A stretch of 64,000 bases of DNA from Isoetes taiwanensis (taxonomy: Eukaryota; Streptophyta; Lycopodiopsida; Isoetales; Isoetaceae). Of this stretch, positions 9,687-61,302 are shown piece after piece. How positions within the stretch are numbered: position 1 is the first letter of the stretch; every line of letters begins with the position of its first letter. Below the pieces are notes generated by a model. The model was not told where the DNA came from and ran no database searches. It was given only the letters and a program-made list of their open reading frames with translations. The stretch is from NCBI GenBank assembly GCA_021234155.1, contig JAJEKV010000053.1, positions 7,083,424 to 7,147,423 on the forward strand, written 5' to 3'. Both the position numbers and the translations under genes were made by a program.

Positions 9687-11082
9687 ATGGATACGCTTAT
9701 GACATTGAGGGAGGCCACATTCGGTCTAGGGCTCAGTCGGCGCCACCCACCCCTCGTGTCATGCCTCGTCCCAGTTCCCCGCCTCAAGCGTGCAAACATT
9801 GCTCATAGCCTCAGTCACCTCATCACTATCAGGAGCCCTATCCGGCTCAACCTTCTCAACCTTACTTTCAGACCCCCGAACATGCCTACATCCATCATTC
9901 TTCGGCCGGGGCGCCTACCGCCTTCACAACCATCATCTCCTACGGGTGGGACGGGGATATCCACAAGTCTCTTTTGCTCCTCCCCAGGAATTTCCATTCC
10001 CTACATTTCCCACCGCTCTTCCTGTTTACAACCTTACAGACCTCAAAACCAATGCTCAGGCACCTCCAGTTCCTCCACCTCAGCAACCCCTTCATCAGGG
10101 TCTTTCCGGCACTATGCCACCTCCAACTCCACCTCAATATAATCCCTATCCCGTTCTTGTCCAGCCAAGCACTTTCACCTCTACCTTTTCGGACCCTTTT
10201 GTCGACTTATACAACCTTTGGCAACACCTAAAGGCAAACCTTTAGACCAAAGTGCTCAGGCCCACATGGAAGAATTTGAGGCTCGCTGCCCTAAATGGTC
10301 ATGCACAACCTCAACTAAAATTCCATATCTTTTTCCACCACATGCGTGGTTCTCCTCACCAATGGCTTATGTCCAACAAAAGCCACTTTGAAACAAGATT
10401 GGTCAGAAATGAAAACTGCTTTTCTTTCTCACTATGGAACCACGGATGATGATCAACTTCATCTCAAGCAACTCAATGACCTTCAACAGGAGCCCACGGA
10501 GTCCGCCAGGGATTTTGCAGATCGACTTCACATCCTGCTCAGCAAACTCAAGGAGTACCCGACCCAGAGCCAGATCTTGATCTGGTTTCTCCAAGGACTT
10601 CCTCCAGCTTTCTCATGACTGAATACCTGCGCCCGAAGACTTTGGAGCAGGCTATTGACCTTGTCAATCTTTCACCAATGTTTTCTCCCGTGGCGTGGCT
10701 CTTCAGAGCTCCCTTTCATTCCACCAGTCCATGGTTCCACTGACTTTTTGTCCAACCTCAACACGCCACTTTCAAGCCGGGCGGACGGTGCCATATCTGT
10801 AAACATCAAGGCCACTTGGCAAATGAGTGCAACTCCACCAATGGCCCGCCTCATTGTAAAAGATGCAACATGTGCAATCATGCCACGGAAGAGTGCACTC
10901 GCACTCATCCTACACCGTTCCGCAACAAACTGGTTTATCAAGTGCAAACAACACCTCAGCAACACTCGCAATATCAGCCGCAACCCCTGCACGCTCAACC
11001 CAATCAACTCTATCAGCAACAGGAGCAACAACGGGGACCCAACACACGCCCCCTTTTGATCCTTCTAAAGCGATGTTATCAC
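9687..11082 (+). pseudogene. gag: gag of the Ty3/gypsy element, frame-broken
   Basis: A Pro/Gln-rich N-terminal part (about 9690-10245) is followed by a gag-like helical part around 10350-10615 (LKQDWSEMKTAFLSHYGTTD, then ESARDFADRLHILLSKLKEY). A nucleocapsid part follows with two CCHC knuckles near 10790-10905: CHICKHQGHLANEC and CKRCNMCNHATEEC, both C-X2-C-X4-H-X4-C. The pieces lie in different frames, with breaks near 10245, 10345, 10617 and 10750. Capsid and nucleocapsid functions are known for the family, but this copy cannot make a full-length product. Confidence 0.85.
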
Positions 11083-11089
11083 ATCACGA

Positions 11090-12916
11090 ATGGGGTCATA
11101 CCACCACGGCATGTCCTCAACTTCCACAAGTTCAGGTGCAACTTCCTGGCACCAATCAGACCACCTCGGTCCGCCTCACGGCTTACCAACTTTGGATTGC
11201 CAATGGCAAACAAGGCCCAAGGCCCCGTTCTTGGAAGCCACCTTGCGCCTCAAGAATCACGCTTATCACCCAGCTCCCGCCAATCAACCTCAGATGGATC
11301 AACAAGCACAGGAAGAAATTTTTCAGGCTCTTAATCCTCCAGTCCAGCCGTCAAATTGGGTTGGTTTGGTTTCACGCCAGACTACCACGCAACCTGCCTT
11401 TGCAGTCGACACAATCCCTCATGAAGAGGAAAAAAAGGTTCACTTTGCACCGGACTTGGAAAAACTCATGCCTCATGTCATGCCTAAAGTACGCCAAAGC
11501 ATTCTGAACCTCATGCAAGCTGCTGAAGGCCGCACGTTGGCTAATGTTCATGCCACCACCAGAGCTCAGCAAAGACAAGATGCACCTTCCACATCTCAAC
11601 CTCCACGCTCTCAGACATATCCGAATATTGCTGCAGAGGTCGACCTACTAAAAGAAGTTGCTGCTTCATTACCACGCACTCCAGCACCCGTGGATCCAGC
11701 AGATCCTTTTTCTCATGTGCCTCTGGAACTCCAAGAGGAGCTGGCAAAAATCAAAATTCCCTTAAGTCTGGCAACAATTTTGAAACTATGTCCTGCTCTC
11801 AAGGACCAGTTACCACTCCCGACCGTTTTGGTTGGGGCTGTCGCTACCTCTACACCCACGGTACATGCCACGGTGGGCAATCAACAAGTCAATCATGTTC
11901 AAATTGACGGAGGTAGCGCTGTCAATCTCATCACGGATAAACTCCGCAAACAAATGGGCATCAAACAACTCTATCGTGCCCCATATGACATCAAATTGGC
12001 TAATGGACATATCACGAGACCTCAAGGCGTCACACCTCTTCTTCACATCAACATTGGTGATCTCCGATTCCCCTTAGAATTTGGTGTTTGGAAGGCTGGA
12101 GAAGATCCAGGTGATTATGAAATGTTGGTTGGCAGACCTTTTCTCCGCCAGGCCAAGAGTATCCATTATTGGGCCACGGATCAGTTAGTCATCACAGATG
12201 GTCACCTCAATGCTACTATAGACTTGGAACTGGGTAAAATCATTTCTTCGACAATGCTGAACCCTCTCTCCGACACCGATTTCGAGGACGCCCGAATATC
12301 TATCAAGTTCGTGCTCGACTGCGAGTCCGCATCGTCATCCTACCCCGAATATGCTGATCCTTGGGGAGAAATGACTCTTGATCAGGACCAGGCTGTGGCT
12401 GCCTTGCTTGACCCCTACCTGGCTCCTTGCAATCGCATCCAACGTGTTGATCACTTTTCAGATGCCGAACTTCCTCCTGCTCCTGTTGATGTACACGCTG
12501 TCATGAAGCAACCTTTGCTTGATGAAAATCAGCAACCTCTTTTTTTCACCACGCAGAGCGCCACTCATCCTGTCATGCTTCAACCTCCTGCTCATATTGT
12601 CAAAGACACGGAAGTTATCCCACATATTCAGACTCCTGAAGTCGAGATTGTGGACGTGGGCAACAATCAGCCTGTCCGCATTGCTGCCAATCTTCCGACA
12701 CCCTATCGTCACAGGGCCGTCACACTCTTCAAAAAGTTCAAACATATTTTCGCACGAGCTACGAGAGACCTTCGGGGATCAACAAAACCTTGGGGAACTC
12801 ACCATTCCTACCAAACTGATGCCCGCCCAAAGATAGCAACGGCAAGCACCGGCTCAACCCCAATTACCGTGATCGCGTCAAGGCAGAAATTGACAAACTC
12901 CTTGCTGCAGGTTTGA
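11090..12916 (+). pseudogene. pol 5' part: protease region of the Ty3/gypsy element
   Basis: An open frame of 608 codons begins in gag-linker sequence. The retropepsin-like segment is near 11870-12160: VNHVQIDGGSAVNLITDKL holds the catalytic Asp in a DGGSA context, and MLVGRPFLRQA is the typical C-terminal protease motif. After about 12780 the frame leaves the conserved sequence; the connection to reverse transcriptase continues in another frame. A linker rich in acidic and aromatic residues separates the protease from RT. Confidence 0.85.
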
Positions 12917-13671
12917 TCTATGAGGTCAAACATTCTGAATGGGTGAGCCCCATTGTCATTGCACTCAAACACAATGGAAAGATCCGCGTTTGCGTGGACT
13001 ACCGGAAACTAAATCAGGCCACGGAGCGTGATCATTTTCCACTTCCCTTCACAGACCAGGTTCTGGAAGAGGTCGCTGGACATGAGATGTACTCCTTCAT
13101 GGATGGTTTTTCTGGCTACAATCAGATCTCAATCAAAGAATCTGATCAACTCAAGACTACTTTCACCACCCCGTGGGGCACTTTTGCCTACAAGGTGGTT
13201 CCTTTTGGATTATCAAACTCTCCATCAACGTTTCAACGCATAATGCTCTCAGTTTTTCATGATTTTATGAAGGAAAATCCCTTCTTGCAAATTTTTCAAG
13301 ATGACTTCTCTGCCTACAGTTCCATGGCTGACCATTTGGATAAATTGGAACTCGTCTTTCAGAAATGTGATGAGTCCGGCATTAGTCTCAATCCCGAGAA
13401 ATGCACCTTTTGTGTCACTTCAGGTGTTCTGTTAGGACACGTTGTCAGCAAAGCAGGTATCACCACGGATCCTGCCAAAATCAGTTGTGTACTCCAGGCT
13501 CACGCACCAGCCAATATCAAGGAGACACGCTCTTTCCTGGGTAAGGTAAATTATTACTCCACCTTCATTCCTGGACTTGCAGCCTTTGCAGATCCCATTC
13601 ATAAACTCACGGGTGATGAATCCACCTGGGCTTGGAATTCCTGTGCGGATCTTCGCTTTCCAACAGCTTGA
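12855..13671 (+). pseudogene. reverse transcriptase domain of the Ty3/gypsy element
   Basis: The conserved fingers and palm are clear: AAGLIYEVKHSEWVSP, IRVCVDYRKLNQATERDHFP, then YSFMDGFSGYNQI with the first catalytic Asp, VVPFGLSNSPSTFQR, and LQIFQDDFSAYS at the position of the usual Y-x-D-D box. Both box aspartates remain, but the first residue is Phe and the second Gln, which is unusual. The thumb motif FLGKVNYYSTFIPG follows. The frame opens near 12845, breaks from the protease frame and runs to a stop at 13671. Confidence 0.9.
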
Positions 13672-39657: not shown

Positions 39658-40389
39658 TCTTGAAGCAGGGATAGGTTCAATACTGTATACGTTTTATACG
39701 CAATACGTATTTTTCGTTTGATACGGCACAAATTTGACGTTTAATACGTCAAAAATACGGCTAAAAAAATTTCCGGCGTCGAAAACTTTCGCGTAAGCGA
39801 AAACAACTGTTTCGCTTACGCGAAGTCTGGTTCGCGTAAGCGAAACAGTATTTTTCGCTTACGCGAACCAGAAATAGTTTCGCGTAAGCGAAATGAACTG
39901 TTTCGCTTACGCGAAAACATCTTCGCGTAAGCGAAACAGTCAAGTTCGCTTACGCGAAACTATTTCTGGTTCGCGCCTCGAAATATATATAGAAAACTTC
40001 GCGTAAGCGAAAACTTCTGCTTCGCTTACGCGAACCGCCCTTCGCGTAAGCGAAACGCAAAGAATGCTTACGCGAACAAAAAAAAGTTTCGCGTAAGCGA
40101 ACCTTTATACTTCGCTTACGCGAAAAGAGTTTCGCGTAAGCGAACATTAAGGCTTCGCTTACGCGAAAGCCGGCGAGGGGATTCGCGTAAGCGAAAACTT
40201 AGACTTCGCTTACGCGAAAGAAAGTTCGCGTAAGCGAAACAGAAGGTTTCGCTTACGCGAAACTTTTTTTTTCCGGCCGGCGAGTATTAAATACAAAAAA
40301 TACGTATTTTTCCCAAAAATACGTATTTTTGCACTTTATACGTCTGAAAAAATAGTTTCATACGTACAGAACCTATCCCTGTCTTGAAG
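39658..40389. mobile_element. 716-bp hAT-type MITE with 8-bp target duplication
   Basis: The element 39666-40381 begins CAGGGATAGGTTC and ends GAACCTATCCCTG, perfect 13-bp inverted repeats, and is flanked by TCTTGAAG at 39658-39665 and 40382-40389. CAGGG termini with an 8-bp duplication mark the hAT superfamily. TACGTATTTTT motifs recur at both subterminal regions (near 39709, 40300 and 40320), like hAT transposase-binding repeats. There is no transposase frame. The core is an array of alternating inverted 14-mers (separate entry). The intact duplication implies a recent insertion. Confidence 0.9.
39788..40261. repeat. array of about 21 alternately inverted 14-mers
   Basis: TTCGCGTAAGCGAA (F) and its complement TTCGCTTACGCGAA (R) alternate strictly. 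F sites start at 39788, 39831, 39879, 39922, 39998, 40041, 40088, 40131, 40182 and 40225. R sites start at 39811, 39854, 39902, 39945, 40021, 40111, 40154, 40205 and 40248. Two degenerate units lie at 39970 and 40063. Spacing between neighbours is 20-27 bp. Each unit has 5-bp palindromic arms, and each F/R pair forms a stem of 14 bp or more, longer where flanks also pair (CTGG at 39827 with CCAG at 39868). Confidence 0.95.
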
Positions 40390-45541: not shown

Positions 45542-48022
45542 TTATACAGAGTCACATTTTTGCAGTTCAATGGTACCGGCATAGCCTTCATATCTCAAAA
45601 ATACTTTGCCTTCGAGAATTTCATCCATCAGTTGGCTGACCTCGGTATTATTCATTCCTCGAAGGTATCTTAGGAAAGTCTTGTTGAAGAACTCTTTAGA
45701 AGGCTTATCTGGCAGTTCCCCATGGTCATCAGCCAGCTTCCGCGTTGCCCACTTGTTAACAACAGCAACTAGCTTAGACCATGATTCTTCTTGCATGAAA
45801 AGGAATTGCTTTTCATCCTTGAATTCTTTAACCTTCAAGATCATTGTAGCTACGTCAAAGAAATCCTGTAATTAAAAGCTGGTCAGGATCGCGACGACGA
45901 TCTTCTATAGCTGAAAATAAGAACCTACCTTCCAAGCGGATGATACTGCAGTGCTTGTTGGGCCTTGTGGAGGGCATCCATAAGCCTTGTGCTGATTCCT
46001 TAATTGCTGGAGCTTTTCGATTAGTGGCTCCTTATATACTGTATCCGCTATAATGTCATTGCACTGTATGGATAACTGAATATACTCTTTATTGGAGAGA
46101 TTTCCATTTAGCACCCGGCTTCTTCGCTTTGCATAGCTTTAGCAAATTCCAGTCGTTGCTCGACATTTCCCATCATAGAACAAAGAATTTGTGCAGCAAA
46201 AATACTGTGATTACCAGAAATAATATAAACTTTCTTGTTCAAGAGCTCCTCAGGGCGGGACCAAGTGATCAACTTCCTGCATTGATGTCCCATCAATTAA
46301 TAGGCATTATAAACAGGCGGTCTAATGGAGAGAAATATGCAATAAAACTTACCTTGTCACTGGGTCAAATGGGATGACATCGGCAGGCGTGAGAACCTCC
46401 GTTGGGCACCTTTTGCAGCTCTTGATTACTGTGTGTGCATGATCATTAGATCGAACCCTATGAGTTAGATTTGCTGGGGCTGTCTTACAATAAAAAATGT
46501 TGATCTTCTGAAACCAATTCACTCCCATAGGATAAAATCTTTTAAATTCTTCTAGCTTGGAGGCGGTCTGTTCAGTAAGCTTCTTTTCTTCATCTGGATT
46601 GAATTTTAATTCATCGGGCATACGTGAAGCAGATGACAAAGTCAACATGGAAGTCGTAGCTATAGAGTTGGTGGACGAGGTGGGAGTAGACGAAGTAGAG
46701 GGCTGCCCAGTCTCTTCAGTATTTAAGTTTCGAAGCTTAACCTTGAAGGTACTTATCTTTCTTAGAAGAGGTGCTTCATGTGTATCCGAGTCTTTCATTG
46801 GAAGAGGCATAAGCATATTTTGACCTGAGGGATCAACAATGGCAGATCCGCCTGGATTTGTATTCTGTACAGGCTGAGACACTAAGGATTCTTTTGGAGT
46901 TGATGGTTCACCTACAACAGCTAATGGGACTACAGTTTTTTCTTGGCAACTACCCGCAACCAGTTCGTGTCCATCCGAAAAGGCATTTTGTTGTCATTTG
47001 TAGCCTTCAACGCAATGGAAGGAGGTTTCTTATCAGCGGAAAGGCCCTTCCTGCACATGTTGAAGCCAACAGTATATCCCTATTGCACTTTATCCCAGAC
47101 AAGCTCAACGAATCATAAGATGGCAGGTTCCAACCATATCCTTTAGCACTAGTGGGTACCTCCTTGCCACTAGCAGGCTTATTCGCCTTGCTTGCAGTCA
47201 TGATAGACGGATCATAGTTTTGCTAGCGCAAAACATACTCCACAAATTGTAGCTGCGGTGTATCCTCCACGTTGCATATGATTGCATCTTGGATATTATT
47301 TTTGGTGCCCTCCCACATAGTGACTATTATGCCCATCTGTTTAAAATCTTCTGGGCCCTTTCTGTTCCTCAAGAAGAGACACAAGTCCTTCCGGCGTTCT
47401 CCTGCCACATGAGGTTTGGCCTGAGCTATTTCCATGCACCATTTCCGACTTCTATCAGGAGTTACAATGCGCATGGATTCCACGTTGGGGCCGCGGAAAA
47501 GCTCCAATGCTGCAAGTAGAATATGAAACTGATAAGTGACACCACTCACTACTCAAAGACATGGCAAAGTGCACACAAGGAACGCGGCCGCGATCTTTAC
47601 AAGTAGACAGACAAAAATATTATTAACAAGAATATATTTGCAAGGATCGCGCCCGGATCTTTGTGAGCAAATTACAGATATGATATACGCACTAATGCTA
47701 AGTATCGCGGCCGCGATCTGTATAACAAGTAGAGATATAAGTATTATCTAGTGTTTAGGTTAATGTGCTCTAAAGGATCGCGCCCGCGATAGTTGTGAGC
47801 AATATCTTAAAACTACACTGTATTTATTGGTGAAAAGAATCACGATCGCGATTCTCACAAGCATGAATACTGTAAAAATACAGAAATACTGCTCGTGAAC
47901 ATCGCGGCCGCGATCCTATCGAGCATATAGCATGCTAAAAACAGGACAACTAATGCTAAAACGACAGCAGTGATCGTGAAAAGCGCGAAAATGCCTTTTT
48001 TTAAGGCGGCTGAGCAAGACAT
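45542..48022 (-). pseudogene. ParB/Srx-like mobile-element protein gene, decayed (copy 1)
   Basis: Exon 1 is 47995-48022 (ATG, 28 nt, MSCSAALKK), with a GC donor where copy 2 has GT. Exon 2 starts at 47509 and joins in frame (ALELFRGPNVESMRIVTP, then RSRKWCMEIAQAKP, MWEGTKNNIQDAI). A TAG near 47234 replaces a Trp kept in copy 2. KGYGWNLPSYDSLSLSG, a Ser/Thr-rich linker, FKRFYPMGVNWFQKINIF and VLTPADVIPFDPVTR follow to 46353. Exon 45929-46276 has ELLNKKVYIISGNHSIFAAQ, whose I-x-G-x-H/R-x3-A pattern resembles ParB/sulfiredoxin folds. After a one-base frameshift it continues with RRSRVLNGNLSNKEYIQLSI. The last exon, 45542-45865, ends IELQKCDSV. Stop and frameshift make it non-functional. The ParB link is my visual inference. 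Confidence 0.65.
47583..47916. repeat. intronic array of GATCGCGGCCGCGATC-like palindromes (copy 1)
   Basis: Six sites start near 47583, 47645, 47704, 47776, 47839 and 47901, about every 60-70 bp. Typical cores are ATCGCGGCCGCGATCT, GATCGCGCCCGCGAT and CACGATCGCGATT, embedded in AT-rich spacers with recurring GTGAGCA. They lie between exons 1 and 2 of the minus-strand gene. Confidence 0.85.
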
Positions 48023-48105
48023 GGCGGCGGTCGAAGGCGCTCGAAAAATTCTGTAGGCGCTCGTGAATTGGATCGCGAAGGAGCCGAGATCTGTGATTTT
48101 CGTGA

Positions 48106-48112
48106 ATTTATA
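48106..48112 (-). promoter_or_regulatory. TATA box of copy 1 minus-strand gene
   Basis: Minus-strand reading TTCTATAAATTC matches TTCTATAAATTG upstream of copy 2 (56521). The ATG at 48022 is 84 bp downstream. Confidence 0.5.
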
Positions 48113-48132
48113 GAATAGGGGTCATTAATGAC

Positions 48133-48219
48133 CCGTCATAATGACGGCCAGAAAATTAATTTCCGGCGGGTGCAATAAATTCCGCGGGCGCAATAAATAC
48201 CGAGGGCGCAATAAATTCC
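48133..48219. repeat. GC palindrome plus three 18-19-bp tandem units
   Basis: CCGTCATAATGACGG (48133-48147) is a perfect palindrome around one base. It is followed by three units of GGGCGCAATAAATTCC type at 48165, 48184 and 48202. They lie between the divergent genes and may belong to their shared promoter region. Confidence 0.7.
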
Positions 48220-48942
48220 GGCGGCGGATCCAGAATATTCTTAAAAACGCCGGAATCGACGTTTTTATTCTCTGCACGGACGCCACCACTAAGTTCAAAA
48301 TTCTATACCATGGGACCCGGGGAAGGAGAACAAAATAGTCACAGCATGCGAGTTTAAATGAGACAATGACACTCGCAATACAGCATGGGACGGGTTGCAG
48401 GATAACATATTACTCACGGCACGCGAGTTTAAATGAGACAGTGACAGTCACAATATGGCATGGAAAAGCCCCTCTAGAATTACCTGAATTTGAAATTCAA
48501 ACTCAATTCACCCAGCTACACGGCCACACCAGCCATTCGTTCAAATTGGACTCGGGGAGGAGGCTTCTAAGGCGCTGAATAGGTCTTCGAAGGCGATCGT
48601 CTAAATTGGAGGCATTTGAGACGCTCATCTGGAAATGGAAGGCGATCTTGAATATTTGAAGACATTTTTCTGGTATTTCGACTCCTGCATGCTCTGAAGA
48701 GTGGAATCAGACAAGATTTACTATTAAAACTTTGTTTTAATTAAATTATAGGACATCTATACCATTTTAACTTCTGTTATATCAAATGAACGAGTTAGAC
48801 AGCAGAAGAGGCCCAGATTTGTATGTTATATTCTATGTAAAGTAATGTCTTGTCTGAAATGAATTTCACAACATAGTTATCACCCTGGCAAACTTATCGC
48901 AGCTTCAAACCCTGGCCAACTTCAAATCACTGACCGCATTCC

Positions 48943-49326
48943 GAACGCGACAGCGATCTTCGTCTCAGCAGTCAAGAAGTATAAATAGTTAATGTTAGAG
49001 CAAACTGATAAAATGTTGGAGCAAAGTGATTTAATGATGAAGCAAATGGATACTAATTTAATGTCTATTGCTTGATCAGGGCTGCTCGTGTCCTCAGCTA
49101 GATCGCGACAGCAATCTTCATCAGCTTTCAACAAGTATATCTTAGTATTGCAGAAAACATGTCTTAGCATTGGAGCAAACGTGTCTTATCACTGGAGCAA
49201 ACTTGTACAAGCCTCTCAGTCCTCAGCTAGATCGTGGCGACGATCTTGAGCAGCACTAGCTTTTCCTGCCGTTCAACTTTTTCCTCAAACAAGCATTTAG
49301 TGCTTCGTATCATCGCCACCGCGATT
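48943..49326. repeat. second array of degenerate GATCGCG-x-CGATC motifs
   Basis: Sites read AACGCGACAGCGATCTT (48944), GATCGCGACAGCAATCTT (49101), GATCGTGGCGACGATCTT (49230) and ATCGCCACCGCGATTT (49312). The spacers repeat GGAGCAAA. The array ends just before the first long exon of the plus-strand gene, mirroring the arrangement on the other side. Confidence 0.7.
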
Positions 49327-49361
49327 TCTAATAGCACTATCGGCCTTGTCTAATTCAAGGT

Positions 49362-50712
49362 GGTTGAATCAAGGTCCATACTATTCAATGGTGTCAAAGT
49401 CAGGGAGGGCAAAGTATATGGTTTCAACAAACATCACAACTTGCCCTTGCCCGTGGGCACCGTGGTAGTGTCTATGGATAAGACTTTGGACGGAAGCATA
49501 CCTTTGCCATATCCAGAAGCCGAGATTTCAACACTCAGAGAGTCGCTGGGGAGTTTCATTTTGTGGCCTGTACGTTGTATAGCGTCGCTTGCGCCCGAAG
49601 GTGACATATCGACTCCGCCAGCGCAGTTAAAAAAATTTAACTGGTAGGTAGTCGAAGACGAGGAAGGTCCATTCAAGCAAACCTGTGGTGATAAAGGCAT
49701 TTCAAGAGATGAGCTGATGGAGAGGAATTGCATGCTGATGCATGACTGCTGCTATATGCACAGGGGGTGATCATCTTCACTGATCCTAATCAGGTAGTTG
49801 GTGACATAAGGTTAGGGGAAGACTTCCTGGCTGCCACCGTGAGTGAAGATATGTCCTATGCCAGAGAAGCCGTCTATGAGATGCCAAGCTTGTGCTGAAA
49901 TGCCGCAACTACACGACTTGGTCAGGTGGTCCAATGCCTTGGTGTTAGTAGACAATATCACAATATCGACTCTCATAGAGGTTGTGAAAGAACAGAACAT
50001 CGAGACAGAACCCTGTGCAATCCAAGTGGAAGTTGCTAAGACTCAAAAGAGGTCTTATAGAATGGTGAATCGAACACCTGCTACTCCATGTAAGATTGAT
50101 AAGAAGATCACTACAGCTTCTATTCTAGACTTCAAATCCATGATTTGGTGCATTCGCAGATGTTGTGCCACTTTCTCCACCTGCGAGATCAAGTCCATGC
50201 GAAGTTTCTTTTGGAATATAAGTGCTGCGGACAGGACCACCTTTGCTTACAACATGCTTGACCTTTGCTCAGAAAATGGGCAGGTCCGGAAGGTGATGCT
50301 AAATAACAAGCAAGTCTGCTTGAAAGCATGGCACAAAGCTTACGACATTCCAATGTCAACTTTCTATAAGTGGCGTGAACTTTTCCTTGCTGGTCATTAG
50401 ACTTGTTGAACATGATAATACGGGCTCAAAGAAACCAAGGTCGCCCAACCTGTGCTAGCTACAAAAACTCCATCTGGCAATCCAATGCAAATCTGTAGCA
50501 GGCTGATAAATTCAGCCTATGCTATCTTCAACCACAAAAAATTCAAGCAAGTGCACAAAGATTTTAATAAGGAAAAGGCCTTCAGATTATTAGCAAAGAA
50601 AACAATTAAAAAAATTATATCCCCGTGCTTTCAGGTACAGCTACCTGAACTACCACAAACCCTTCGCTCCAGAACCAAAATAAAAACAGATGCTGCTGCT
50701 ACGACCTCCTAA
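49362..50712 (+). pseudogene. plant-transposon-type gene with DUF8039-like and HTH-like parts, decayed
   Basis: After a TTCAAG acceptor, NGVKVREGKVYGFNKHHNLP, VGTVVVSMDKTLDGSIPLPY and LRESLGSFILWPVRCI match the pattern of the DUF8039 domain found in CACTA-type plant transposon proteins. The frame ends at 49647. Around 49990-50400 another frame reads CKIDKKITTASILDFK, CIRRCCATFSTCEIKSMRSF, AYNMLDLCSENGQV and VCLKAWHKAYDIPMSTFYKW. That pattern (Cys-rich segment, FW, then VC-x2-A and a helix-turn-helix) is seen N-terminal to several eukaryotic transposase domains. A third piece lies at 50452-50712. No DDE catalytic core is visible. It may be the transposase partner of the minus-strand gene. Confidence 0.45.
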
Positions 50713-53361: not shown

Positions 53362-54605
53362 TTGATTCAGTTTTGGGGGCCTTGTGAAAGTAATGAGCAA
53401 CTGGCTGCTAAACTCGCTGCTCAAAATACTGTGATAATGCAAAATATGGGGGATATCCTTGCCTCCCTTGCGGGTGATGCAACCAACAATGCAATAGATT
53501 CACAGGTTAACTGGGATTTAATTGAATTGATAAGGCACCTGAGAGAGAAGGGGCCATTAATAACCCAAGCGACTCTAGTGATTTCGAGGTTTGCCAAATC
53601 AATACTAAAATTATGTCAGTTGTGAAGGACGTAAAGGAACTAATAGAAAATACAAAGATATAACAATTCTAACAGTCAGAAGAGCACAGAGATTAAGGGT
53701 GGCGAAGGGGAGAATGATGCTAACGACGACAGCGAAACTGAAGATGATAGATATGGCCTTGCAGATGAAATCGTGCCACGCGTGATTTAATTTATCTTTA
53801 GTTTGAATTAAATCGCACCAAGCATGTTTTGTTTACATTTCATTGTCAGATTAAATCATGTCGAGCGCGATTTGGTTAAGCCTAACTCAAATCACGCCTG
53901 ACGCATTTGTATTGTTGCAATGTATAATATAAGGGTGTGCATGATCATATCTTGCTGACCAGATACATGTTTGATGTTTCAGCTTCTCTCCGGTTTCTAA
54001 GAAGGTTTGGTGTTCGATCTAAACGGAGTTATTTGTAAGACTTTTCCGAAAAATAAAGTGGCTAGAGATCAGTTTCACCAGACACCAGTAGAATCAAATT
54101 TCAAGTGGAACTATTCGCGGCCGCACTTGAAAAAGATGCTAGATGAGGCATTTAGGTTATTTCGAGTTGGTATTTGGTCATCGATGGAACTAAGGAACAT
54201 CAAAGATACTGTGGAGGCATTGGGGGAAATGGGTAGACATTGGTTGACCTTTTGGGATCAACACAAATGTGTGAAGTTCACTAATTCCAAGGATCCAACA
54301 GGCAAGCCTATCTTCATCAAACATAGGACGAACTTGGTATCGAGAATAAGGATGATATAATCATAGTGGATGATGATGCTCTCAAATGCTTCTACAATCA
54401 AACGCAGGCCCTGAATCCACTATCTTATGATCCAAAAAATTTTGTGACAGATGATTTTCTGGTGAAGTTTATGTCTATTATAAATAATTTGGTTATAGGG
54501 ATGACAGTGCGTGAAGTGTTAGATTCACACCCAGAACTAGATAGAACAGTTGACATGGAACCACACCTTGTTAAATTCCTGGAAAAACATGGATTGATCC
54601 CTTAA
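53362..54605 (+). pseudogene. FCP1/NIF-type phosphatase-like gene, frame-broken
   Basis: The core 54001-54605 carries the HAD-type FCP1 homology pattern: LVFDLNGVICKTFP, HLKKMLDEAF, GIWSSMELRNIKDTVEAL, HWLTFWDQHKCVKFT, DPTGKPIFIKH, then IIIVDDDALKCFYN and YDPKNFVTDDFL. The catalytic box is DLN where DLD is usual; a DLNG variant is common in plant FCP1-like proteins, but the second Asp normally acts as acid/base. A one-base frameshift near 54335 separates the halves. An upstream piece (53362-53625, LAAKLAAQNTVIMQNMG, LIELIRHLREKG) may be an N-terminal exon. Functional relatives dephosphorylate proteins such as the RNA polymerase II tail. This copy is probably dead. Confidence 0.7.
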
Positions 54606-54712: not shown

Positions 54713-56134
54713 AATATTTTCAAGGGACCAGTGGTCTCGTTTGTTGCAGGATTTGGCCTTGGTTGAGGTCCCTGGGGACTTGTCTTTCACCTATTGTAAT
54801 AGGCAGATTGGTGCGGGCCGGGCGTATGCTAGGCATGACCGGTGTTATGCTTCCCCATGCGCACTGGATGGTATGCCCTCTTTGTGCCGGAGTAACATTC
54901 TGTCTACCTCCATTTCTGATCATTACCCTCAAGTTTCGTCCAGTCAGGGTGCAGTTGCCTCTCGGCCCTCTAGGACGGTGTTCCGTTTGAACACCCGGCT
55001 TCTGGCTGATGCGGATTTCTCGGCCCAGTGCCAGGAGTTGTGGCTTGATACCTTTTCATCTCTGAAGGGTATGTCTGGTATGGTGACTGCCTTGCCCAGG
55101 GTGAAGCGTTTTGCCAAGGTCTTTGGTAGGCAGCGTGTGCAGTAGGAGCGGCAGGAGTTGCATGGTCTCTATCAGGAGTTGGAGAGGATTCGGGCGCAGC
55201 CTTCTGATGCCATCAGGGAGAATGCAGTGTTGCAGCGTATTGTTGCTCTGGAGCAGGTTAAAGTCGCGGGAGGCATGTGAAGGCGGCCCTTACCGGGTTG
55301 AAGGAGGGGACACAAGTTCGTTTGTTCTTGAGCAGACTAGGGCGGCGATATCAAAGATCTATGGCGCCCCTTGCTTTGCCTCGATGGCCGGAATTTGGAG
55401 GATCCCGCTGATTTGCAGAGGTATGTGCATGCCCATTTCTTAGGGTTTTTCGCGACCGCGACTCTTCCCTATGAGCGAGGAGATGCGGGGAGCTTGTCTT
55501 GGGGGTCGTTAAGTCATTGATTCGCGCCTCACCAAACAAGTGAGAGCTTGGAGGCGGAGCTCTCCAGAGAGGATTTAGTCTGCAGCATGTATGTGCATGG
55601 CCAAGGATAAATGTCCCGGGCTGGATGGCATCCCCTGTGGAGTTCTTTTCGGACTTATTGGGAGTGGGCTGGTGAGTGATTGTACCGTGTGTATCTTGAG
55701 TTGCCGCAGTCTTCTCAAATGTTTAGGATATTGAATACCGCATGCATTTCCTTGATTCCTAAGGTTAAGCAGCCTTCTACTATTAATGATTGGAGGCCTA
55801 TCTCCTTGTTGTCCTCTGTGTATAAGATTATTGCGAAAGCCCTGGCAGAGAAGTTGAAGCCGGTGTTGACTTCTTCCATTAGTAAGGTGCGTACTGGTTT
55901 GTCCCCGGCGGGAACATTTTGACTAATGTTGCCGCAGCCTTATGAGGGCCTTTATTGGGCCAGAAGAACAGGTCAAGGCATTGCCTATCTTAAGCTTGAC
56001 TTTGCCAAAGCTTACGATAGTGTCCGTTGGGAGTTTTTGTCTGCCATGATGTTAGCACTGGGCTGTGGTCCACGCTTTAGAGAGACAGTCATGAAGTTGC
56101 ATAGGTCAGCACGGGCTACGGTCAGCACGGGCTC
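54713..56134 (+). mobile_element. LINE, 5' part (endonuclease end and RT start), split by an insertion
   Basis: Reads, with several stops and frame changes, from the C-terminus of an AP endonuclease (DLSFTYCNRQIGAGRAYARH, STSISDHYP with the catalytic DH) through a linker to RT: ACISLIPKVKQPSTINDWRP, ISLLSSVYKIIAKALAEKL, then [20 protein letters not shown] with the motif A Asp. The RT breaks off after [10 protein letters not shown] at about 56128 and resumes at about 61303. The 5' end of the LINE is truncated in the endonuclease. Confidence 0.85.
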
Positions 56135-56523
56135 CAGCGCCTCGAAGATCTTGCAAAACAATGAAATTTGAATTGGCTTTTCCCGCTTTCTCGAATTGGT
56201 TTGTTCTCGATTTCAAATTCTCTGATCCATCTGTCCGTCCAGAACCGGATTTTTTGGGGCATTTATAGTCGTGATAATGTGTCAGTCCGAAATTACGCCC
56301 GAATTTGAACGCGGACGCCCAAGTGGATAAGGACCTTTCCTACGGATTACTTGCCTTTTTCGGACGGGGTATATTCAGATTTAATCGCATTTATGTCGGG
56401 GAATAAATACGTACGGCCGGGCCGGTAATTATTATCGCCGTGCACGACGCCATTATGGCCGCACGCTTTTTCACGCAGCAAGCAATTATGAGGGGCGGAC
56501 AATTAATTTCAGCGGCAGCGTTC

Positions 56524-56530
56524 TATAAAT
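56524..56530 (+). promoter_or_regulatory. TATA box of copy 2
   Basis: TATAAAT in the context TTCTATAAATTG, conserved with copy 1. The ATG at 56656 lies 126 bp downstream. Confidence 0.5.
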
Positions 56531-56655
56531 TGAAACTTCAAACCTTTAAAACAAATTTCGACTACGATTTGATTCAGCGCCCTAGCCTTCACCCTCCGAA
56601 ATTTTCTCGAGCCACTCCAAAAGACTCAGATTAACGAACTCGGCCCAGCGATCCC

Positions 56656-59600
56656 ATGGCACCTAAGGACTCCCTCAAAGAAGGTATTTTCTAACATTTC
56701 ATTCAGCAAGATGGCGGCCGCGATCTTGCCTACTCGAAGCTTCTATTGTTTTCATAAGTGTAGCTGCCGGCAAGATCGCGGCCGCGGTCTTGCTTGATAG
56801 GTTTTGTAATTTCTAGACAGCGTTCTTCATAAGTGTAGCTGCTCAACAAGATCGCGGCCCCGGTCTTGCTTGATAGGTTTTGTAATTTCTAGACAAATGG
56901 TCTTCATAAGTGTAGCTGCTCAACAAGATCGCGCCACGGCCCGGCCGAAAGTATAGATTTTCTTTCTTTTATATGTTTCATGAGTACTAGTGTAGTATCG
57001 CCATTAGGTTCGCGGACCGCGATGTTTTCTTGTCGTGCTTAAGTGCTACACAACGTCGCGGCCGCGATAGTGTGGAGTTCTATTTTAGCTGCTCGGCATG
57101 ATCGCGGTCGCGTTTCTCTACAGTAGTTTCTACCTTTTCCTTGCACCACATTATGCGCACCTACCGTGCACTCACCACGGGCTTTTGTTTACAAAGACTT
57201 GCTCTCTCCGAGGACCGGATGTCGAAGCTAGTCCAGATTATAACCCCTTCCAATGAAAGGAAATGGTGTATTGAGATTGCACAGGCTATACCGCGACATT
57301 AAGGGTGACCGCAGAAAGGACCTGCAGGCTCGCTTTGCGGACCGGAAAAAGCCGAGGACGCGTTGAACAAGTTGGCATAGTGGTGGCAATGTGGGAAGGC
57401 ACGAAGAACAATGTGCAAGATGCTATCGTATGCAAAGATTGAGGACACACAAGCATTGCAGTTTTCGGAGTACATTTTGAAATGGCGCAATTATGACCCG
57501 CCTATGATGATGACCAAAATGAACAAGCCAAAATTACGTGGAAAAAACGCCCCCACGCCGCCTAAGGGTTATGGCTGGTTGTTGCCATCCTATGAATCTC
57601 TCTCTTTGTCGTATAAAGGGAAACAGAGACATATTGCTCGGGTTCTTGGCATGCGTAAATGGTTTGTCTACTGACAAGAAGCCTCCGAAGCCGTGCCTTG
57701 AAAGCGGGCTCGACGAAGATGCCCTCCGTGATGGACACTAATTGACTAAGAGCCGTGGCCAAGAAAAAAGTGTGAAGCCTATTGCTGCTTTGGGAGAGAC
57801 ATCAGCACCAAAAAAGAAATTGCTCAAGAACCACAATCCACGATAAACCCCTCCGGTATTGTTAACCCTACTCTTCCTATTGCTATGAAGGCCCCGAGAT
57901 AGCACTACATCCGGGTGGATTTATTCCAAAAAGTTCCCTCCTTTCGAATTAGCCTCGTGAATCGGACACCCATCAAGATAGCCCTTGATCCGGCCAGTTC
58001 ACAAACCCCCGCGATTCACGGATGCTTCCTCTAAACTAGCATTGCCATGGCACCACGACCGCCATTCGGTCGAGTTGAAGTTCAACCCAAGAGGAACGAA
58101 GATGGCAGAGCAAACCACTCAAGCTTGAACAAATTAAAAGGTTCTACCCCTTAGGGGTTAATTGGTTTACAAAGATTTCTATTTTTGATTGTGAACCCGC
58201 ACTCAAAGCAAACTTGACACACGAACGCGGTCAAATGACCATGTTCAAACTCTGGTTAAAAGCTTCAAGACATACCCGACAGAGGTCCTCACCCCCCGGG
58301 TGACGCCGTTCCGCTTGACCCTATTACCGTGTAACTAATTCTTTATCTTTTGGACACTCGTTATGTAGATTTGACCTCGACGGTTGTCTATCTTTCGTGA
58401 AGAGGGTGACATGGAGCAATCAGTAAGATTTGAAGGGCAAGAAATTTTATATTATTTCGGCAACCACAAAGATTTTGGCGCCAGACAACTCCTTTGTTCT
58501 GGTTGTCGGCGAAGTTCGAAAGCAAAAGAACGAGAATTTGCCAAAGTATATGCTAGAAGACGATCGAGGGTGCTCAACGGAAATCTTACGCACAAGGAAT
58601 ATATAGAGTTGAGTATTCAATGCAACGGTAATTGCAAACACCGCGGTCTGAGAGCCACCGATTGAAAAACCGCAACAACTTCGCCATCAAGACAAGGCTT
58701 ATGGTTGCCCTCCACAAGGACCTATAGGGACAAAGCTAAAACTTCAGCTTGGAAGGTATTTATTTGTTTTCTACTCGCCAAGTTCGCTAATCACGATCTT
58801 GAAGACCTTGAAATTGCTTCGCAGGATTTCCATGAAATTGCAACGACCACCTTGAAAGTGCAGGAGCTTAAGGATGAAAAACAATTCATTTTATGGATGA
58901 AAAGGTTTTCAAGAAGTTAATGGAAGTTGCCGGCCGTGGGTGAGTCGTGAAACTTCTGATGGCGACCATGGTGAGTTTCCGGACAAGCCATCCAAAGACT
59001 TCTTTAACAAGACCGGCCGGTTGTTACGAGGTATGTCGAATGCGTAGGTGTCACAAATTGCCGATGAGATTATAGAAGGCAAGACGATTTAAAGGTGCAA
59101 TCAAAGTTATAGCGGAGATTTGATTGCAAACAACGGGCAACCGACATCGTAGAACCCTCACTTTATGAGGCGAGAAATTTTTCTTATGCCACAAATTTAT
59201 CGCAAAAGGATTTCGATAGTGGGAGGAATTGCTTCGTGCTTTTCCCCGATTTGATCGAACAGAGAATACCGGATATATCGATACCGATACAGAGTAACGC
59301 CAAGGCTAATTATAACAAGGATCATACACTAGGTAACCCACCAGAGCTTTTCCGAGCCAATCGGGAATATTCTAAAAGCCGTAAGAGGCTAGAAAAAGAA
59401 AGGAAAAGAAAAATATTGTCATAGCAAAGTTGACAAAGGATGGCATCCCTACTTCCTCCCAAGTGTCGAGAATGCGACATTGATATTTATTGACATCCGA
59501 GGGATGAACAAGGTATGGGATTGCAAGAAATACACAGATCTATTTACAAGGATAGCTACCATGACGATTGCCAAAGTTTATCACTTGGTTATTATCATGC

Positions 59601-60823
59601 GCCGCTGAATTTGCCAAATTGCTTTGTACAAATAAGCAAATTCAGCATGGTGGCTACCTATCTTTAGGTTCCTATGAAGAAAGCGGGATGGGAGAGCAAA
59701 CGAAGGGTGAAAGAACATCAAGATTTTATTAGTCATATGTGCATTAACAGGGTGATGTTGTTGTGTAACACCGCGGCAACCAGAGTTGAGCTTCACCTAT
59801 CTCCACACGGCAAGGCTCCTAAGTCAACACCATTGCCTCCAATGCCGCTAACGGGTAATGAGGATGCCGACGAGAAGATAAAAAGAAATATCGACTCTTT
59901 TTACGTGCAAACCAAGATTCAAATGGGCTGCAATGGAAGGAGATCTTGTATTGAAATGCCACTGAAAACCTCCTATGCCTACCATATTGTTGAACAATTT
60001 GGTGCCGACCGATGGTTGTGTTCGGATTTTTTTCTACGGACGACTTCTCGTGTTGCTCTTATGCAAGGCAAAAAGAGCGTGGCTTTCGAAAGTTCAGGTA
60101 AAGTGTGCCGTTTCCTGAGGGCGTTCTTTGAAACGCTTGATAAAATGGCCAATCCAAGTGCCGATGGGTTTGAGGAAGAGCCGAAAGCAGAGAGGGTTGA
60201 GCCTGATCCAGCTCAACCCGACATCAGTATCACCCAAAACACAGATCTATCAAAGTTGGATTCCATTTTGGAAAACCTCGATGCTAAGTCCTACGAAGAG
60301 AGAATGCAAGAAACAAAGCGTTTGCTTGAAGAGACGGAAAAAGGTATAGAAGCCCTAGAGCCCACTTTTCAAAAATTGAGTGCACTTAATGAGAAGCTTG
60401 ATGGGTACATGCCTTTCTTGACAAAGCTTAACATCGGTTTGAATACGCGTCTTGGCGAGAACACATGGAAGCAGACCAAGAAGACATGGAGATTGACCAA
60501 GATGAGGTTCTTGGGTCACAGGAGCATCAGGTACACAGCAAGAAGCAGAAGCTCTCTCATCCACAGCAGAATGCTACTGCTGATCGGAGCTACTGCAAAA
60601 CGAACTTATAGGCGGGAGCAGTGCAATGGACAGTGAAGAATGGGAGCCTGATTCACATCTGCAGCGCATCGCAAAGGCCATGGGTGTTGTAGTTCCAGAG
60701 ATCACAGGTTATTCAGAGATGGACACAACACAAGCTATGGAATTGGGTAGAGAGCATGTCAATCGCATGGCCAATGAAATGGGTGTGATACCTGATGAAG
60801 TATCTGAAACACAATCAGAATAA
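56656..60823 (+). pseudogene. ParB/Srx-like plus DNA-methyltransferase-like mobile gene, decayed (copy 2)
   Basis: Exon 1 (56656-56683, MAPKDSLKE) is 28 nt as in copy 1. Exon 2 (from about 57211) has RKWCIEIAQAIPR, MWEGTKNNVQDAI and SEYILKWRNYDPP. Then come FYPLGVNWFTKISIF (58140) and YARRRSRVLNGNLTHKEYIE (58545-58610). From 59200 it diverges from what copy 1 keeps: TLIFID-IRG-MNKVWDCKKYT (59480-59545) sits where a DPPY catalytic motif is expected, VYHLVII follows, and EMPLKTSYAYHIVEQFGADR with WLCSDFFLRTTSRVALMQGK (59955-60075) fits the AdoMet-binding segment of beta-class N4/N6 methyltransferases. A coiled coil (60290-60420) and an acidic end (to 60823) close it. Many stops and frame changes. 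The domain names are inference from motifs. Confidence 0.6.
56708..57114. repeat. intronic array of GATCGCGGCCGCGATC-like palindromes (copy 2)
   Basis: Seven sites at about 56708, 56771, 56848, 56924, 57009, 57053 and 57100. The best are CAAGATCGCGGCCGCGGTCT and AAGATGGCGGCCGCGATCTT. Spacers repeat CTTCATAAGTGTAGCTGCTC and TGATAGGTTTTGTAATTTCT, so the array grew by unit duplication of 63-77 bp. It fills intron 1, as in copy 1. Confidence 0.85.
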
Positions 60824-61302
60824 TTATCTCCTTCAATCAGTAATTATGTTGTATATTACTTCCTTCAATGGAAATTTTTGTTTCGGGAACTTTGGTTTTG
60901 TCTTTACCCATCCTCTGTAGCAATTATATGGCTTTAAATACTGAATTTTGTGTGATATCCTTGCTCCTCGGTACCTTCTTTTAACACAATGCTCTCATAT
61001 GGTTTTAATAAAAGGCACATTATTTTGTCTCCTTTCAGGTGCTAAACATCGCTTCAAGGCTTCTTGAGAAGTTTTAACACTCCCTCCTACTACGTTATAC
61101 TCATGCGGTGAACCTTTGCATTAGCGGTAAAACTATATTTTCGAATAAGACCGAAAGTTTTTGAGAATTTGTGCAAAAAACGCCAACTTTTACTCAATTG
61201 GTAGTAGTTTTTGCACTATATGGCTATCCGCTAACCTATTTCATGCTAAACGAGAATTCCAAATTTCTCTAATTAATGAATTCATGCTTTGGTGTGCCAG
61301 GG

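What the first reader, a model, noticed from the sequence alone, without database searches (positions are those of the whole stretch)
56135..61302. Undescribed-looking plant mobile gene joining a ParB/sulfiredoxin-like segment to a DNA amino-methyltransferase-like segment
Seen: two homologous spliced copies (45.5-48.0 kb and 56.7-60.8 kb) share exon 1 length, splice sites and motif order (RKWC-EIAQA, MWEGTKNN-QDAI, KGYGW-LPSY, FYP-GVNWF-KI-IF, SRVLNGNL-KEYI-LSIQCN). Copy 1 has VYIISGNHSIFAAQILC, the shape of the ParB/Srx G-x-H/R-x-A-A motif. Copy 2 adds a region with a degraded catalytic motif (DIRG where DPPY would stand, followed by MNKVWD) and an E-x-P-L ... SDFFLRTTS ... GKKSVAFE segment like the AdoMet site of beta-class methyltransferases. 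Known: ParB-N plus N4/N6-methylase pairs are typical of phages and bacterial mobile elements; a plant transposon carrying one would be unusual. Inferred: the domain identities and the mobile nature.
Basis: partly seen in the sequence, partly recalled or inferred. Interest (0 to 1): 0.9.

Follow-up and report, generated by a model that had tools for sequence, protein, structure and literature searches.

The report
Plant transposon's ParB/methylase-like accessory gene
Two decayed pieces of a roughly 10-kb plant jumping gene carry an accessory gene whose protein looks partly like a bacterial DNA-methylating enzyme but lacks the usual catalytic motif; a similar kind of accessory gene is already described in algal transposons.

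Summary
The observation largely holds: two related, decayed, spliced gene copies lie at 45.6-47.5 kb (minus) and 57.2-60.8 kb (plus). Genomic relatives show their source: a DNA transposon of about 10.2 kb with terminal inverted repeats (AAGCATGATTTC...) and 4-bp target duplications (4 of 4 elements followed to both ends). Palindromes, ATCGC-N4-GCGAT, cluster before both genes, in an intron and near the right end. The methyltransferase likeness is supported for the AdoMet-binding motif (profile score above 100 shuffles), but none of 24 readable copies (27 examined) has the catalytic DPPY, so its absence is a family trait here. The ParB likeness rests on motifs; its profile test failed. Substitution patterns indicate purifying selection. 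ParB/methyltransferase accessory genes opposite the transposase are already reported in a brown-algal Sola-1 transposon and, per that paper, in green and red algal ones. So this is a new variant of a known kind, apparently in a land plant; its most likely role, inferred, is binding its own palindromes for transposition or against silencing.

The parts
56131..61290 (+). Copy 2: left-truncated transposon fragment (part of the region before the accessory gene, accessory gene, right end). Left limit 56131 or 56161 depending on the relative.
   Evidence: blastn extents against L025 and L024
61271..61289 (-). Right terminal inverted repeat AAGCATGAATTCATTAATT
   Evidence: 1 match, expected 0.04; same ends in four full elements
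57231..58331 (+). Copy 2 accessory gene, exon 1 region (approximate ends; frameshifts and stops)
   Evidence: motifs RKWCIEIAQA 57258-57287 and FYPLGVNWFTKISIF 58142-58186
58390..58758 (+). Copy 2 exon 2 region (approximate ends), with the ParB/Srx-like motif in decayed form (YYFGNHKDFGARQLLC 58450-58497) and SRVLNGNL..QCN 58564-58626
58838..60823 (+). Copy 2 exon 3 region: methyltransferase-like domain and C-terminal part (approximate ends, several frames)
59486..59521 (+). Motif IV position: FIDIRGMNKVWD (no DPPY)
   Evidence: D-[MI]-R-[SG] in most relatives
60022..60090 (+). AdoMet-binding motif I region, SDFFLRTTSRVALMQGKKSVAFE (decayed form of DFFSxGTASRVAL)
45595..50447 (-). Copy 1: internal transposon fragment holding the start of the DUF7869 gene, the region between the genes, and the accessory gene up to early exon 3
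   Evidence: blastn against L009 (84.9%)
45595..47474 (-). Copy 1 accessory gene (exons 1, 2, start of 3); GNHSIFAAQ motif at 46180-46230, SRVLNGNL..QCN at 46058-46120
49361..50440 (+). Copy 1: N-terminal part of the divergent gene whose product in the relative E11 carries DUF7869
   Evidence: homology to E16/E11; PF25273 E=2.1e-42 in the E11 product
47581..47914 (.). Cluster of 5 palindromes ATCGC-N4-GCGAT, at most 1 mismatch (47581, 47704, 47777, 47839, 47901), before the accessory gene of copy 1
48944..49325 (.). Second cluster (48944, 49102, 49312; 49231 with 2 mismatches) before the DUF7869 gene of copy 1
56711..57114 (.). Palindromes before the accessory gene of copy 2 (56711, 56775, 57055, 57101; 56851 with 2 mismatches)
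45888..45901 (.). Palindrome (1 mismatch) in the intron 2 region of copy 1; intron 2 of L011 also holds one

Best explanation
The two copies are fragments of a high-copy DNA transposon with a DUF7869 gene (inferred to be the transposase) and a divergent accessory gene. The accessory protein (about 1140 residues) has a ParB/Srx-like segment (weakly supported), a beta-class amino-methyltransferase-like domain that keeps the AdoMet-site motif but, in the copies read, not the catalytic DPPY, and a C-terminal part. Most likely it binds the transposon's own palindromes, which cluster before both genes and near the right end, and thereby helps assemble the ends or keeps the element from being silenced. 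Shown: element structure, palindrome arrays, conservation and selection. Inferred: DNA binding, AdoMet binding, anti-silencing or end-assembly role, loss or change of methyl transfer.
For: Elements E11, E15, E16, E20 are 10,246, 10,140, 10,141 and 10,183 bp with matching TIRs and 4-bp direct repeats AATT, TTAG, TATA, TTTT. The right TIR is found in 16 of 20 loci. PF25273 E=2.1e-42 in the E11 product. Palindromes with at most 1 mismatch: 9-11 per element, 0 in about 9.6 kb of flank of each, shuffle means 0.03-0.23; in the window 14 of 14 such sites fall inside the two copies, one of them in coding sequence. Open 1142-codon gene in L011. Between subfamilies dS is saturated while dN is 0.15-0.40; the 6 pairs with countable dS have dN/dS 0.14-0.46. 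AdoMet-motif profile match: score 43.4, E 2.2e-5 for one comparison, probability 76%, against a maximum of 23.2 in 100 column shuffles. DPPY in 0 of 24 readable copies, 27 examined. Same architecture in print for an algal Sola-1 element.
Against: ParB likeness fails the profile test (probability 0.8%, 16 of 100 shuffles score as high). Pfam, NCBIfam, PHROGs and sequence searches of the PDB give no credible hit. The methyltransferase profile match covers only 46 columns and not motif IV. Both AlphaFold models are poor (pLDDT 36 and 43). No binding or expression data. The palindromes could instead be bound by the DUF7869 protein or be promoter elements. A different catalytic motif could still transfer methyl groups.
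Confidence: 0.6

Rival explanations
1. The protein is an active amino-methyltransferase that writes 4mC or 6mA on its own transposon, as suggested for the algal relatives, using an unusual motif IV.
For: AdoMet motif conserved and the gene under purifying selection; the Ectocarpus authors suggest own-element modification for such proteins.
Against: The P-P-[YFW] that holds the target amino group (recalled) is missing in 24 of 24 readable copies of 27 examined; the position reads D-[MI]-R-[SG] in 20 of them.
Confidence: 0.15
2. The protein is a structural partner of the transposase (end-binding, like TnpA of En/Spm, recalled) without an epigenetic role; the methyltransferase-like domain is a relic scaffold.
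For: Palindromes near the right end and before both genes; divergent two-gene layout.
Against: The AdoMet motif would not need to stay so conserved.
Confidence: 0.25
3. The resemblance to ParB and methyltransferases is chance; an unrelated plant-specific protein.
For: No family hit at usual cut-offs; ParB profile test failed; no Foldseek match at E 0.001.
Against: AdoMet-motif profile match far above shuffles; best Foldseek match and, by my count, 17 of the 50 rows listed (459 in all) are DNA/RNA amino-methyltransferases; a published algal protein of similar length and the same layout.
Confidence: 0.12

Closest known systems
Sola1-1_Ec32 accessory protein, Ectocarpus (PMC12477816; passages and part of the reference list seen)
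   Same: Accessory gene on the strand opposite the transposase in a large DNA transposon; 1104 aa versus 1142 here; ParB-like plus amino-methyltransferase domain.
   Different: Element 21.5 kb versus about 10.2 kb here; brown alga versus probable land plant; whether its DPPY is intact was not seen; direct sequence homology not tested (no sequence held).
Green- and red-algal transposon proteins cited there (Iyer et al. 2011; Petroll et al. 2025; neither read, the second not held)
   Same: Stated in the Ectocarpus paper to be similar proteins in transposons.
   Different: Details not seen.
Bacterial and phage ParB-methylases, e.g. L029-L031
   Same: Order ParB-like segment then beta-class methyltransferase; alignable AdoMet motif.
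   Different: About 400-430 aa, DPPY present, GHGR or GHQR rather than GNHS, no large N-terminal region.
VANC proteins of Arabidopsis VANDAL transposons (PMC10398659, abstract seen)
   Same: Transposon-coded protein with repeated target regions in noncoding sequence (analogy for function only).
   Different: No homology claimed or tested; VANC-induced loss of silent marks is reported there as shown earlier.
4mC methyltransferases of bdelloid rotifers and Marchantia (PMC8885841, passages seen)
   Same: Bacterial-type amino-methyltransferases in eukaryotes.
   Different: Host genes, not transposon genes; the Marchantia enzyme is described as having no extra N- or C-terminal domains.

Membership tests
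Transposon ParB/methyltransferase accessory proteins (algal Sola-1 type) | Coded in a TIR transposon on the strand opposite the transposase | tested here: met
   E11 layout, taking the DUF7869 gene as transposase (inference)
Transposon ParB/methyltransferase accessory proteins (algal Sola-1 type) | ParB-like domain | tested here: inconclusive
   motif order only; profile test not above shuffles
Transposon ParB/methyltransferase accessory proteins (algal Sola-1 type) | Sequence homology to the published algal proteins | not tested
Beta-class N4/N6 amino-methyltransferase | AdoMet-binding motif I (D-x-F-x-G-x-G-T) after motif IV | tested here: met
   order
Beta-class N4/N6 amino-methyltransferase | Catalytic motif IV [DSN]PP[YFW] | tested here: not met
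   0 of 24 readable loci (27 examined) have it
Beta-class N4/N6 amino-methyltransferase | Rossmann methyltransferase fold | tested here: inconclusive
   models of pLDDT 36 and 43; best PDB match M.MboIIA, E 0.15
ParB/sulfiredoxin superfamily | Profile-level similarity including G-x-H-R motif | tested here: not met
   GNHS instead of GxHR; score 15.7, 16 of 100 shuffles as high
Sola superfamily of DNA transposons | 4-bp target site duplication (recalled) | tested here: met
   4 of 4 elements
Sola superfamily of DNA transposons | Sola transposase homology | not tested
   only DUF7869 found; no Sola reference held

The most novel reading that the evidence does not exclude
A plant transposon lineage keeps, under selection and in high copy number, a protein that has turned a captured DNA methylase into a sensor: it holds AdoMet but no longer methylates, binds parS-like palindromes spread over its own element, and so protects the element from silencing or brings its ends together.
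Probability: 0.3. Interest if true: 0.75.

Novelty: new variant of a known kind. Interest (0 to 1): 0.5.

Why it matters
It would extend a recently noticed class of transposon accessory proteins from algae to what looks like a land plant, in a genome with 150 scored exon-1 matches among 1786 candidates, with the methylase catalytic motif replaced in the copies read. This makes a question testable: do such proteins modify their own DNA, or only bind it to counter silencing? The palindrome arrays give a ready-made binding target.

Tried and rejected
Rejected: retroelement or virus-like origin (both ends of four elements are short TIRs with 4-bp repeats; no direct repeat of LTR type was reported between the copy ends). 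Rejected: a copy 2 left end at 56163 with a GAAATTTG inverted repeat; true ends read AAGCATG. Rejected: DPPY loss as decay of one copy.

No use: Pfam, NCBIfam, PHROGs; PDB by sequence (the one row below 0.001 is a cytochrome matched outside the domain of interest); phage tblastn (three weak rows in 31, E 2-6); viral contig scans; protein database (no hit at E 0.01 among 3765 candidates, nor at E 1 among a capped 7990); first fold. A genome-wide count of DPPY versus DMR/DIR copies did not complete.
Full report
What is there. The window is a 64-kb piece of a 1.66-Gb genome in 1110 contigs. A gene that reads as an LRR receptor kinase (29.7-32.1 kb, read by eye) and the transposons around it suggest a plant; the species was not identified. 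Two decayed gene copies lie at 45.6-47.5 kb (minus) and 57.2-60.8 kb (plus).

Relatives. A search of the own genome with the first-exon product gave 150 scored matches out of 1786 candidates, identity 65-100%, many with long open frames; the methyltransferase-like exon gave 124 scored out of 2428 candidates. I fetched 20 loci of 9.9 kb from the first list, picked for long open frames and spread of identity. One, L011, has an open gene of 1142 codons after removing two GT-AG introns of 64 and 65 bases; the splice sites were picked by a script that sought the longest product, the start codon is assumed, and a further upstream exon is possible.

The element. Alignments within subfamilies ended at about 7.1-7.25 kb on the right, and many ran off the left edge. 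With upstream stretches for 4 of the 20 loci both ends were found: TIRs starting AAGCATGATTTC and 4-bp direct repeats AATT, TTAG, TATA, TTTT (read by eye), lengths 10,140-10,246 bp. The right TIR is recognisable (at most 3 mismatches in 19) in 16 of the 20 loci; L010, L026, L027 and L028 lack it. On the opposite strand, upstream, lies a gene whose product in E11 matches Pfam PF25273, DUF7869 (E=2.1e-42). Pfam gives it no function; I infer transposase from its place. DUF7869 gave 150 scored of 9903 candidates in this genome, so it is not confined to this element. Window copy 1 is an internal fragment (45595-50447) that includes part of this gene at 49361-50440; window copy 2 is left-truncated (56131-61290) and lies in a LINE-like sequence (read by eye).

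Palindromes. ATCGC-N4-GCGAT with at most one mismatch occurs 11, 10, 10 and 9 times in E11, E16, E20, E15, and not in their flanks (about 9.6 kb each), against shuffle means of 0.03-0.23 (30 shuffles each). They cluster before the DUF7869 gene, before the accessory gene, in the second intron and in the last 0.75 kb. In the window, all 14 such sites lie in the two copies, one of them (60668) in coding sequence. The window total of 54 at two mismatches (expected 15.3) is inflated by an unrelated array at 39.8-40.3 kb (19 sites).

Domains. Library searches gave nothing credible. A profile of 15 rows of the plant domain against 18 phage methyltransferases (some partial) aligned the AdoMet-binding region (46 columns; score 43.4, E 2.2e-5 for one comparison, probability 76%); 100 column-shuffled controls reached at most 23.2 and the reversed profile 17.5. 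With the first 9 phage rows the score was 38.8, probability 62%. Column shuffling is a lenient control, and motif IV did not align. The same test for the ParB segment (5 plant rows against 13 phage and bacterial rows) failed: score 15.7, 16 of 100 shuffles as high, although GNHS..AAQ and a following VLNGNLSNREYIQLSIQCND stand where ParB domains have GHxR..AA and their next strand and helix (recalled pattern). AlphaFold models were poor: pLDDT 36 for exon 3, 43 with pTM 0.44 for the 262-residue core. Foldseek with the latter ranked the methylase M.MboIIA first (E 0.15, probability 0.57); none of 459 matches reached 0.001; by my count 17 of the 50 rows listed are amino-methyltransferases, and most of the others are unrelated. 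This is a hint, not proof.

Catalytic motif. Motif IV could be read in 24 of 27 own-genome loci (L009-L028, L057-L063): DMRS 10, DIRG 10, and DMRR, DMCS, DMRC, DMLA once each; DPPY none. These loci were chosen by similarity to the window copies, so more distant versions with DPPY are not excluded; the genome-wide count did not complete.

Selection. Between subfamilies synonymous changes are saturated while dN is 0.15-0.40; the 6 pairs with countable dS give dN/dS 0.14-0.46 (Nei-Gojobori script, selected loci). This speaks for a protein kept functional in active lineages.

Known work. The Ectocarpus transposon paper (PMC12477816; [quoted passage not shown] The finding belongs beside these by architecture; homology could not be tested. 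Paper searches listed no title or abstract start that reports it in land plants, but I saw only the 12-20 rows listed of each (of 24, 25, 429, 20 and 172 papers), and the library lacks most subscription journals; one search found no paper naming DUF7869. The anti-silencing idea leans on VANC proteins (PMC10398659, abstract) and is an analogy only. Nicking by the ParB domain of a bacterial ParB-methylase is noted in PMC5512222 (passages).

Verdict. Real, mobile, conserved; methyltransferase-like but without the standard catalytic motif in the copies read; ParB unproven; a new variant of a known kind.

Noticed in passing
39782-40270: Tandem/inverted array of TTCGCGTAAGCGAA palindromes (19 sites), unrelated to the transposon palindromes.
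   Followed up: no
11069-13668: LTR-retrotransposon-like remains: a reverse transcriptase frame (RVT_1, E=2e-27, 12820-13668) after a frame with a weak, below cut-off aspartyl protease match.
   Followed up: no
54001-54357: Fragment matching NLI-interacting-factor-like phosphatase (PF03031, E=9e-6); the overlapping next frame 54327-54602 matched nothing.
   Followed up: no
G000, whole genome: DUF7869 gives 9903 first-look candidates (150 scored, all over the cut-off), many with long open frames, so other transposon families probably share this domain.
   Followed up: partly
L010:3797-7848: One copy of the gene is split by about 4 kb between exon-1 pieces, as if by a later insertion.
   Followed up: no
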